Shown here in pieces: positions 2,885-37,059 of a DNA stretch of 51,195 nt. The DNA is from Nitrospirota bacterium (GTDB taxonomy: Bacteria > Nitrospirota > Nitrospiria > JACQBW01). Numbering within the stretch: the stretch's first letter is position 1; each line of letters opens with the position of its first letter. The stretch covers positions 1-51,195 of the forward strand of contig JACOTA010000043.1 of NCBI GenBank assembly GCA_016178585.1, given 5' to 3'. Below the pieces are notes generated by a model. It was not told the DNA's origin and did not search any database. It was given only the letters and a program-made list of their open reading frames with translations. Both the position numbers and the translations under genes were made by a program.

Positions 2885-2958
2885 CGGGGCGTAGCGCAGC
2901 CCGGTAGCGCACTCGCTTGGGGTGCGAGTGGTCGCTGGTTCAAATCCAGTCGCCCCGA
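2885..2958 (+). tRNA. tRNA-Pro (anticodon GGG)
   Basis: A full cloverleaf: acceptor CGGGGCG (2885-2891) pairs with CGCCCCG (2951-2957), discriminator A. The D stem is GCGC/GCGC and the anticodon stem CTCGC/GCGAG with loop TTGGGGT, giving anticodon GGG. The T arm is GCTGG-TTCAAAT-CCAGT. CCA is not encoded. It reads CCC/CCU codons. Confidence 0.95.
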
Positions 2959-2970
2959 TTCTTTACATAG

Positions 2971-2993
2971 GGACAGGCCCATGTGGCCTGTCC
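2971..2993 (+). other. perfect 9-bp hairpin downstream of tRNA-Pro
   Basis: GGACAGGCC, loop CATGT, GGCCTGTCC. It starts 13 bases after the tRNA and could help end or process its precursor. There is no T-run after it. Confidence 0.5.
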
Positions 2994-3027
2994 TGGCACC
3001 CGTAGAGAGGGTCAAATCCCCAAACGT

Positions 3028-3051
3028 AGTCCCGAATTTCGGGACTTTTTT
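3028..3051 (+). terminator. Rho-independent terminator after tRNA-Pro
   Basis: Stem AGTCCCG / CGGGACT with loop AATTT (arms can extend to 9 bp), followed by six T. It separates the ihfA-MerR-tRNA unit from surE. Confidence 0.85.
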
Positions 3052-3098
3052 ATTTCAGGAAACATCCGGTTGTTTTTAACTTTTCAGAGCAGAGTATT

Positions 3099-3872
3099 AT
3101 GATCGACATTCTTGTTTCCAATGATGACGGGATTCAATCTCCCGGGATCCATGCGTTAGCCGAAGTTCTTCGAGAATTAGGAAATATTTACGTTGTGGCT
3201 CCGGATCGTGAAAGAAACGCCGTTGGTCATGCCCTGACCCTCCATAAACCGCTGCGCGTCGAAGAAATTAAAAAAAACTTTTTCAGCCTCAATGGAACTC
3301 CCACGGATTGTGTAAATTGGGGAGTGCTCCACCTTTTAAAGAAACCACCTGCCCTGTTGGTTTCCGGGATTAACAAAGGAGCTAACCTGGGCGATGATGT
3401 CACCTATTCGGGTACCGTTTCAGCGGCATTTGAGGGAACAATTCTTAAAGTGCCTTCGATTGCCGTATCCCAAATGGGCCCGCCTCCCTACGAATTTAAG
3501 TCCGCCGCCCAGTTTGCCTTGCAAATTGCCAAACAGATCTTAAATAAAGGACTCCCAAATGATATTTTATTAAATGTCAATGTCCCGAATCTCCCGATCG
3601 AAAAAATCAAGGACATTAAAATTGTTTCCCTCGGCAGGCGGGTTTTTGAAGATAACGCCATCATTGAGAAAACAGACCCCAGAGGGAGAAAATATTATTG
3701 GATAGGGGGAACAAAAATTCTTTGGGAGGATAAACCAGACACGGACAACGATGCGGTCTCCCATGGCCATGTGTCAGTTACCCCTCTTCATCTCGACCTA
3801 ACCCATTATGAATTTCTGAAAAAGATGAAAAAATGGGAAAAGGCGCTCAACCGCGATAAGAAAGACGATTGA
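3099..3872 (+). CDS. surE: 5'/3'-nucleotidase SurE
   Basis: Metal-dependent nucleotidase that dephosphorylates nucleoside monophosphates, linked to stationary-phase survival. The 257 residues match the family. Metal site SNDDG at residues 7-11, then APDRERNAVGHALTLH near 34-49, TPTDCV near 67, and the second metal and phosphate region SGINKGANLGDDVTYSGTVSAA. The C-terminal DNDAVSHGHVSVTPL block is also typical. The TGA stop overlaps the TTG start of dedA (TTGA), so the two are translationally coupled. The start ATG follows a weak purine-rich site. Confidence 0.95.
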   Translation: MIDILVSNDDGIQSPGIHALAEVLRELGNIYVVAPDRERNAVGHALTLHKPLRVEEIKKNFFSLNGTPTDCVNWGVLHLLKKPPALLVSGINKGANLGDDVTYSGTVSAAFEGTILKVPSIAVSQMGPPPYEFKSAAQFALQIAKQILNKGLPNDILLNVNVPNLPIEKIKDIKIVSLGRRVFEDNAIIEKTDPRGRKYYWIGGTKILWEDKPDTDNDAVSHGHVSVTPLHLDLTHYEFLKKMKKWEKALNRDKKDD

Positions 3873-35383: not shown

Positions 35384-35421
35384 AAAAAAAAGCCTTCTTT
35401 CTGTTAAAAAAGAAGGCTTTT
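35384..35421 (-). terminator. pyr operon attenuator (intrinsic terminator in the leader)
   Basis: On the minus strand AAAGCCTTCTTT, loop TTTAACAG, AAAGAAGGCTTT, then eight T, ending a few bases before pyrR. Its place downstream of the PyrR site shows it is the regulated terminator. Confidence 0.88.
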
Positions 35422-35483
35422 CGTAAGTCGATGACTGTTTAAATTTTGGGTGGAGAAAAAAGAATCAGGCGGCACGTCTAAAT

Positions 35484-35515
35484 CCTTTCTAGTCTCACAG
35501 GACTAGGTTTAAAGG
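35484..35515 (-). promoter_or_regulatory. PyrR-binding RNA hairpin (anti-antiterminator)
   Basis: Minus strand CCTTTAAACCTAGTCC, loop TGTGAG, ACTAGAAAGG. Stem CCTTT/AAAGG and CTAGT/ACTAG with the loop pattern AGTCC-N-GTGAG matches the PyrR consensus known from Bacillus. It starts within a few bases of the predicted transcription start. Confidence 0.85.
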
Positions 35516-35523
35516 TTCGTTTG

Positions 35524-35552: not shown

Positions 35553-35595
35553 GAAATCTTAAGGTATATTGTCGACAATTGAATAAACGGTGGCC

Positions 35596-35771
35596 AAGGC
35601 CATGGCAGGGGGGGTGGAGGAGTGGGTCGTGCGATAGAACCACGCGCGTCAGGAGGCAAACCACCTGCCTGAAACGTGTTTCATGAACGTTTTAGGCCAA
35701 AGTAAGAAGGATATACGAGGCAATAACGGTCGACGCTTTGACCCGCGAGGGAGTCACCCTGCCTTGGCCTT
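35596..35771 (+). ncRNA. candidate structured RNA, class unknown
   Basis: A 176-bp non-coding segment closed by AAGGCCATGGCAGGG (35596-35610) and CCCTGCCTTGGCCTT (35757-35771), 14 of 15 pairs. Inside are GTGGGTC / GACCCGC, a hairpin CGTGCG / CGCGCG, a hairpin TCAGGAGG / CCTgCCTGA, a hairpin AAACGT / ACGTTT and CAAAG / CTTTG. Two helices use U-G pairs that become C-A mismatches on the other strand, so plus orientation is favoured. No clear promoter was found for the plus strand; a TAATAT box precedes the minus-strand version. It lies between the pyr promoter and the end of nfuA. It does not show 6S, RNase P, tmRNA or SRP RNA signatures. Confidence 0.55.
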
Positions 35772-35785
35772 ATATTAGCGACGTC

Positions 35786-36406
35786 TTAGGATTTAAACGT
35801 GGGAATACTCCCCTTTTCATTGTTGAAAAATGGATTGGTGCCGGCAGAATGATCGGTGATGTCGATTAAATCGGTAATTTGCGGAAATTTTTCAGTGAGA
35901 ATCTTCATGACCCCATGTTTTAAGGTTTTGGCGGCCATCCCGCACCCCTGGCATCCTCCGGACATTTCAACATAAACCATGTTGTCTTTAAGGTTGACCA
36001 GACTGATATGTCCGCCATGTTCCCCTACCCCCGGATTAATCACCTCATCCAGAATTCGGGCAACTTCACGGGCCATTTCACTGTCCCAGGCAGGATTGGG
36101 ATTATCAATCACCCAGGCCTGGGTAAAACCGGCATGAACATAATCAATGACAGAACCTTTAATCAGATCTTCGGACTGCCAATCGATAAAAAACCGATAA
36201 TCACCGCAGGGTAAATTAAAATCACGTGGGTCTGCTTTTCCTTTTTCAACATAATCAAACTTATAAACAAAATCCCCTCCGCGCCGGCTTACGGTCATTT
36301 GGATCCCTTCGTAATTCCCCCCTTGAAGGGCTTCACGAACTTTTTCAACAGCCCCATCGGTCAATGTCGCGATGAGAGGCTTTTCCGCTGGTTTTTCACG
36401 ATTCAT
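35786..36406 (-). CDS. nfuA: Fe-S cluster carrier NfuA
   Basis: Delivers 4Fe-4S clusters to target proteins. The N-terminal half (about 10-105) is a degenerate A-type carrier domain without its three cysteines, and the C-terminal half is the NifU domain with the cluster-binding C152-x2-C155 (GGCQGCGMA) in the E. coli NfuA context (NPGVGEHGGHISL before, LKHGVMKIL and DLIDITDH after). 206 residues. A 68-residue gene lies 12 bp upstream, likely cotranscribed. Confidence 0.92.
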   Translation of the reverse strand: MNREKPAEKPLIATLTDGAVEKVREALQGGNYEGIQMTVSRRGGDFVYKFDYVEKGKADPRDFNLPCGDYRFFIDWQSEDLIKGSVIDYVHAGFTQAWVIDNPNPAWDSEMAREVARILDEVINPGVGEHGGHISLVNLKDNMVYVEMSGGCQGCGMAAKTLKHGVMKILTEKFPQITDLIDITDHSAGTNPFFNNEKGSIPTFKS

Positions 36407-36648: not shown

Positions 36649-36986
36649 TCATTAAACATAGGAACACTTCCCTATTTTAGCGGAGCGCCCCCCGTACGTA
36701 TACAAAAAAATGACCTCGCCCACGCCCAGTTATTCCATTTTAGACGGAAAAAGAGCGAGGAAAGGCTAATACTGCCGGATTCCGCGGTTCATGAGCGGAA
36801 ACGGCCACGGAAACAACGCTGGATAGAAATTCTCCGATAGTCCGACTTTGGATCGACGACAGAATCCCTTTCCTTGCTCCGCTGCATAAAAACTGGCGGT
36901 GAACAATAGAAAATGATCCCTTGACTCTTTATCAGCAAACATGATAAAAAACCTCTCTCCTCAAGAGAAACCGATCATGTATTTTC
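36649..36986. other. 338-bp gap before tRNA-Lys
   Basis: No gene recognised. It contains a possible tRNA promoter TTGACT (36921-36926), 17-bp spacer, ATAAAA (36944-36949), about 40 bp before tRNA-Lys. The -10 is weak. The rest shows nothing I can name. Confidence 0.45.

Positions 36987-37059
<73 letters not shown>

What the first reader, a model, noticed from the sequence alone, without database searches (positions are those of the whole stretch)
35596..35771. A 176-nt structured, non-coding element of unknown class beside the pyr promoter
A closing helix of 14 of 15 pairs encloses several further helices (listed with the feature). Two of these contain U-G pairs on the plus strand that would be C-A on the minus strand, so the plus strand is favoured. 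It does not match the known 6S, RNase P, tmRNA or SRP RNA motifs I can recall. It is separated from the pyr transcript and from nfuA.
Basis: partly seen in the sequence, partly recalled or inferred. Interest (0 to 1): 0.68.

Follow-up and report, generated by a model that had tools for sequence, protein, structure and literature searches.

The report
Mobile repeat encoding a structured RNA
The stretch is a real, evolutionarily maintained folded-RNA sequence, but it is not a one-off gene beside the pyr operon: it is one of about 18 scattered copies of a small mobile DNA element that carries this RNA, and it matches no catalogued RNA family.

Summary
The 14-of-15 closing helix is present and the plus strand folds better than all 200 shuffles (z -3.55). 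Rfam 15 has no matching family. Several copies carry ~20-bp terminal inverted repeats (CTTGCCCACCCCCAGTTTT...) and three have perfect 10-bp target duplications, as a DDE-type MITE would. Covariance models, extended stepwise, found diverged copies in 8 further genomes of the class (3 families, 38-58% identity between lineages). Across 23 copies 87.8% of pair cells are standard, 24 of 32 pairs show changes on both sides, and there are 114 compensatory cells against 37.8 in shuffles. G-U outnumbers A-C 66 to 11, pointing to plus-strand RNA. Closely related genomes lack the element at sites where a sister species has it. In three species it sits at the same place beside uvrA and keeps its fold. 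Best reading: a MITE-like mobile element whose ~176-nt interior is a selected RNA. What the RNA does is inferred, not shown.

The parts
35594..35772 (+).
   Evidence: covariance model R1 hit at E 2.9e-38 (training sequence), blastn copies at 74-77% identity elsewhere in the genome
35596..35610 (+). 5' side of closing helix P1 (14 of 15 pairs with 35757-35771)
   Evidence: read; MFE; P1 helices 92-95% paired with double changes in 23 copies
35757..35771 (+). 3' side of closing helix P1
   Evidence: as above
35616..35621 (+). purine-rich internal loop, 5' side (GGAGGA type), facing the conserved GACGGA-type strand at about 35747-35753
   Evidence: conserved between diverged copies in A6/A7
35622..35628 (+). 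5' side of helix P2 (with 35740-35746)
   Evidence: P2: 7 of 8 pairs (7 here plus the adjacent single pair) with double changes, 87.7% of cells paired
35740..35746 (+). 3' side of helix P2
   Evidence: as above
35631..35633 (+). short helix P2b GCG, pairs with CGC 35734-35736
   Evidence: G-C in 5, A-U in 3 of 8 close copies at one pair
35667..35697 (+). hairpin P3: 35667-35677 pairs with 35687-35697, loop GTTTCATGA
   Evidence: compensatory changes in close copies and diverged copies
36715..36907 (+). second copy in the window: TIR-bounded, internally deleted, of the subtype also seen at C53:2671-2850 and C32:15895-16073
   Evidence: model R2 hit 36745-36849, E 6.4e-5; left TIR CTCGCCCACGCCCAGTTAT 36715-36733; right TIR ending CTGGCGGTGAACAAT at 36907
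36705..36714 (.). left target-site duplication of the second copy, AAAAAATGAC
   Evidence: 8 of 10 identical to AGAAAATGAT at 36908-36917
36908..36917 (.). right target-site duplication of the second copy, AGAAAATGAT
   Evidence: as above

Best explanation
The feature is one copy of a dispersed mobile element of the MITE kind. Its ~176-nt interior encodes a plus-strand RNA with a conserved fold: closing helix P1, purine-rich internal loop, P2, then an open junction that carries hairpin P3. Shown: the repeat family, its mobility (TIRs, 10-bp target duplications, occupied versus empty sites) and selection on the fold across three bacterial families. Inferred: full copies in this genome were moved in trans by a DDE transposase that was not found, and some copies, the window's among them, have lost the TIRs or never had them. 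Inferred and least certain: the RNA is transcribed and its folded form is what selection sees, most likely because it helps the element persist or spread, with some copies later kept in place by the host (the uvrA-linked copy).
For: Copies in the same genome: blastn 74-77% identity, 12 loci with R1, end fragments with TIR patterns. TIRs with perfect 10-bp target duplications GTTGTTTTTT, CTCAGAAACC and ACACAAACGG. Homology between unlinked copies ends at the core edges. Occupied versus empty sites: G006 against G022 (ABC ATPase/permease) and G015 against G025 and G019 (rlmN/M16 peptidase). Stepwise discovery: R1, trained only on this genome, found G006; R2 found G002, G011, G015, G028, G036, G042; R3 found G050. 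Covariation: 17 of 32 pairs on a plain MAFFT alignment of 11; 24 of 32 pairs and 114 double-change cells against 37.8 shuffled (0 of 500) and 16-36 in slid controls. Window copy versus G006 copy L047, 53% identical: 7 compensatory pairs against 1.9 expected and 4 broken against 12.9 expected. G-U 66 against A-C 11. The uvrA-linked copy sits at one locus in three species and shows a two-pair swap TC/GA to GA/TC in P1.
Against: No autonomous partner transposase was found: PF01609 is absent from this genome and no transposase was noted beside the TIRs inspected. The window copy has no recognisable TIR or target duplication. No transcript data, and no promoter or terminator signal inside the element. 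In the uvrA-linked lineage the G-U signal does not favour the plus strand (1 G-U against 5 A-C). Some alignments were fitted to the model, which leans towards its structure. Patchy distribution (9 of 270 genomes of the class) fits mobility but argues against an essential RNA.
Confidence: 0.72

Rival explanations
1. A host-beneficial small RNA gene (regulatory or RNA-polymerase-binding, in the manner of 6S RNA) that has been duplicated by a hitch-hiking transposon.
For: Same-site inheritance beside uvrA in three species with the fold kept; fold kept over 38-58% sequence identity between lineages; core-only copies without TIRs in other families.
Against: Present in only 9 of 270 genomes of the class; copy number varies from 1 to about 18; many copies are truncated; no match to 6S or any other Rfam family.
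Confidence: 0.25
2. The fold works as DNA: a cruciform or single-strand hairpin needed by the enzyme that moves the element, with no RNA role (as with REP or attC hairpins).
For: The closing helix lies at the very ends of the mobile unit in core-only copies; DNA hairpins are known transposition substrates (own knowledge).
Against: G-U is kept six times as often as A-C, which a double-stranded DNA role would not favour; this holds for copies in either orientation to neighbouring genes. A role for one single DNA strand, where G-T pairs are tolerated, is not excluded.
Confidence: 0.15
3. An mRNA-level element: a stem-loop in 3' untranslated regions that blocks or recruits RNases, as proposed for Neisseria NEMIS repeats.
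For: Several copies lie close to stop codons, e.g. 14 bp from nfuA and 4 bp from the M1-type peptidase in G042.
Against: Orientation to the flanking genes is mixed, yet the G-U bias follows the element's own plus strand in both orientations.
Confidence: 0.12
4. A chance stable fold in GC-rich intergenic DNA, with apparent covariation due to repeat homology alone.
For: Shuffled sequences of this composition already fold at about -57 kcal/mol.
Against: Compensatory changes far exceed shuffled and slid controls and the pairwise substitution null; independent genomes were found by structure-based models.
Confidence: 0.02

Closest known systems
QMITE2 / CbsR16 of Coxiella burnetii (PMC5896051)
   Same: 150-190 bp repeat; full-size copies have TIRs and direct repeats of 7-11 bp, small copies have neither; sits between genes and near 3' ends; stable predicted RNA fold; one copy yields a small RNA.
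   Different: Sequence, TIR and host differ. The passages read rest on a single-sequence mfold prediction; here the fold is supported by compensatory changes across three families of another group. No transcript is known here.
CIR repeats of Caulobacter/Brucella and Correia/NEMIS repeats of Neisseria (reviewed in PMC2229807)
   Same: Small TIR-bounded intergenic repeats whose transcripts fold; for CIR a phylogenetically conserved RNA fold is described.
   Different: CIR are two long inverted-repeat arms with a GANTC motif; NEMIS are short stem-loops proposed as RNase III targets. Here a closed branching fold of about 176 nt with conserved purine-rich internal loops.
Transposon-encoded guide RNAs (IS110 bridge RNA, HEARO/IscB and TnpB omega RNAs)
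   Same: Mobile elements that carry a structured RNA of similar length (own knowledge).
   Different: No associated recombinase or nuclease gene noted, no Rfam match. TIRs plus 10-bp target duplications do not fit IS110 or IS200/IS605 (own knowledge).
PyrR binding site (RF00515)
   Same: Neighbouring structured RNA at 35384-35519, minus strand.
   Different: A separate, known element; not part of this finding.

Membership tests
MITE (non-autonomous DDE-type transposon) | multiple dispersed copies under about 600 bp without coding capacity | tested here: met
   about 18 copies or fragments in G000, about 230-260 bp when full, between genes
MITE (non-autonomous DDE-type transposon) | terminal inverted repeats | tested here: met
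   CTTGCCCACCCCCAGTTTT at both ends of several G000 copies; 15 pattern hits against 1 for the reversed control. Not found at the window copy 35594-35772 nor in other families
MITE (non-autonomous DDE-type transposon) | target-site duplications | tested here: met
   three perfect 10-bp duplications (C53a, C6a, C35); imperfect at C6b, C18 and the second window copy (read)
MITE (non-autonomous DDE-type transposon) | related autonomous element sharing the TIRs | tested here: inconclusive
   no PF01609 transposase in G000; TIR pattern search in 12 genomes showed no transposase-bearing partner among the loci inspected; other transposase families not searched
Any Rfam 15 family (including 6S, RNase P, tmRNA, SRP, HEARO) | match at or above gathering score | tested here: not met
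   no match on the element at gathering or E<=10 beyond chance-level microRNA models; none on 14 homologous loci
Structured non-coding RNA | covariation exceeding controls | tested here: met
Structured non-coding RNA | transcript with the predicted fold | not testable with these tools
   no expression or probing data available
IS110 bridge RNA | adjacent DEDD recombinase and guide loops matching target and donor | not tested
   no recombinase recognised near copies in the ORF lists, but PF01548 was not searched

The most novel reading that the evidence does not exclude
The RNA itself takes part in the element's mobility, as a guide, scaffold or template for a trans-acting enzyme. The family would then be an RNA-dependent mobile element without its own protein, able to move both inside a TIR transposon and as a bare RNA-length unit.
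Probability: 0.15. Interest if true: 0.85.

Novelty: new variant of a known kind. Interest (0 to 1): 0.58.

Why it matters
Bacterial MITEs are usually treated as DNA debris with incidental hairpins. Here the interior keeps one branching RNA fold while its sequence diverges to 38-58% identity, over three families and either side of mobile insertion. That makes it testable whether small bacterial transposons carry RNAs under selection, and whether the benefit goes to the element or the host. It would also be a new RNA family for Rfam.

Tried and rejected
Rfam at gathering and at E<=10: no match on the element. Blastn in plasmids and phages and one viral-contig pattern scan: nothing. Pattern scan of 84,980 genomes: 17 stretches, about the number expected by chance (my estimate about 11), none convincing with R2; two Spirochaete loci look like coding sequence. 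Blastn over 58 class genomes: only the own genome; structure models were needed. DDE_Tnp_1 transposase in the own genome: absent. Target-duplication search for core-only copies: nothing convincing. Literature searches for this element in its host group: nothing.

Full report
Observation. The closing helix 35596-35610 / 35757-35771 pairs 14 of 15, and the plus strand folds at -71.7 kcal/mol against -57.0 +/- 4.15 in shuffles, z -3.55. The minus strand is nearly as good, z -3.05, so strand cannot be decided by energy. Rfam 15 finds only the neighbouring PyrR binding site (35384-35519, minus, 58 bits) and two tRNAs in the window. On the element itself nothing rises above chance even at E<=10.

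A dispersed family. Blastn of the element against its own genome (2.45 Mb, 82 contigs) returned six further copies at 74-77% identity, and a first covariance model (R1, from eight copies) raised this to 12 loci. Adding a second copy in this window and end fragments found by their terminal repeats, I count about 18: ten full or nearly full (C6 twice, C13, C17, C18, C29, C32, C43 = this one, C53 twice), three with internal deletions (C5, C35 and C43:36715-36907 in this window) and five end fragments (C6:5892, C25, C30, C67, C73).

Mobility. Full copies in this genome end in inverted repeats CTTGCCCACCCCCAGTTTT / AAAACTGGGGGTGGGCAAG. The pattern with up to 3 mismatches has 15 hits in this genome against 1 for the reversed control. 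Three copies are flanked by perfect 10-bp duplications (GTTGTTTTTT at C53, CTCAGAAACC at C6, ACACAAACGG at C35). Three others read as decayed ones: CTGTATTTTT/CTAGATTTTT at C6b, AGTCAAGATT/AGCGGAGATT at C18, and AAAAAATGAC/AGAAAATGAT at the second window copy. In other genomes the repeats stop at the RNA's own ends. Comparison with sister genomes shows occupied and empty sites: G006 holds a copy between an ABC ATPase and its permease where G022 has none, and G015 holds one between rlmN and a peptidase gene where G025 and G019 have none. In G011 the ABC site holds a copy in the other orientation beside what reads as a remnant of another copy. The window copy has no recognisable TIR; the nfuA C-terminus PTFKS is shared with G002, so its right edge must lie between 35772 and the nfuA stop at 35786.

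Selection on the fold. R1, trained on this genome only, detected three strongly diverged copies in G006 (E 2e-8 to 5e-7). R2, trained on 11 copies, then found G002, G011, G015, G028, G036 and G042. R3 found G050. In all, 9 of 270 genomes of the class, in three families, hold it; the sampled rest of the phylum gave none (with stricter filters). Identities between lineages are 38-58%. On a plain MAFFT alignment of 11 copies, 17 of 32 predicted pairs show changes on both sides. On 23 copies aligned to R2, 87.8% of cells pair, 24 of 32 pairs have double changes, and 114 cells are compensatory against 37.8 in shuffles (0 of 500) and 16-36 when partners are slid. That alignment was fitted to the model and so leans towards it; the slid control and the MAFFT alignment limit this concern. 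Between the window copy and L047 (53% identical) 7 pairs changed on both sides and stayed paired against 1.9 expected, and 4 broke against 12.9 expected.

Strand. Over all pairs there are 66 G-U and 11 A-C cells. The window copy has 6 and 0. The bias follows the element's own plus strand whichever way the element faces its neighbours, which argues for an RNA of its own. The exception is the uvrA-linked copy of the g16 genomes (1 G-U, 5 A-C). There the element is at the same site in three species (flanks 81-87% identical), and P1 shows a two-pair swap TC/GA to GA/TC, so the fold is kept in place, but the strand is open.

How it most likely works. Steps shown: repeat family, TIRs and duplications, occupied versus empty sites, selection on the fold. 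Steps inferred: a DDE transposase acting in trans (none with PF01609 in the genome), transcription of the plus strand, and a role for the folded RNA. I favour selection through the element's own persistence or spread, because distribution is patchy, copy number varies and many copies are broken, with occasional retention by the host. I give about 0.25 to a host small RNA, 0.15 to a purely DNA-level hairpin and 0.12 to an mRNA 3' element.

Comparison with what is known. The nearest described case is QMITE2 of Coxiella burnetii (PMC5896051): 150-190 bp, full-size copies with TIRs and 7-11-bp direct repeats, small copies without either, near 3' ends of genes, stable fold, one copy giving the small RNA CbsR16. 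CIR and NEMIS repeats are similar in kind (PMC2229807). The MITE criteria tested here are met for the family in this genome, except that no autonomous partner was found; the window copy itself lacks TIRs. It belongs to no Rfam family. The distinguishing point is comparative support for one branching RNA fold across three families.

Limits. Distribution scans over hundreds of genomes used strict filters and may miss weak copies. No expression data were available.

Noticed in passing
window 36715-36907: Second, internally deleted TIR-bounded copy of the same family between the small ORF after nfuA and a tRNA gene (36987-37059), with an 8-of-10 target duplication.
   Followed up: yes
window 35384-35519 (-): PyrR binding site/attenuator (RF00515, 58 bits) ahead of pyrR; a sigma-70-like promoter (TTGACT-17-TAGAAT) lies at 35552-35524 just outside the element.
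   Followed up: partly
L005/L038 (G000:C29), L147 (G000:C30), L021 (G000:C53): A different dispersed repeat (AAGAACAGAG...TCATTGCGAGCG...GCAATCTC) interrupts copies of this element at nearly the same internal position in two loci.
   Followed up: no
L059 and L077, 188 bp upstream of the element; inverted copy upstream in L047: Another palindromic repeat (CCTCCCTGCTCCGGCGGCTTTTGTTTGACCCGG...) sits next to the element in f5 genomes; 83% identical between two unlinked loci.
   Followed up: partly
L058 (G011:C42): What looks like a remnant of an inverted copy lies directly upstream of an intact copy, at the site that holds a single, oppositely oriented copy in G006.
   Followed up: partly
G000:C53:2646-2884 and 2937-3110 (L034): Two very different subtypes of the element lie side by side; one bears the same perfect TIR as subtype I copies although its core is only about half identical.
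   Followed up: partly
L124 (G011:C67:5554-5716): Degenerate further copy, third within 6 kb of contig C67, found only with R3 (E 1e-5).
   Followed up: no
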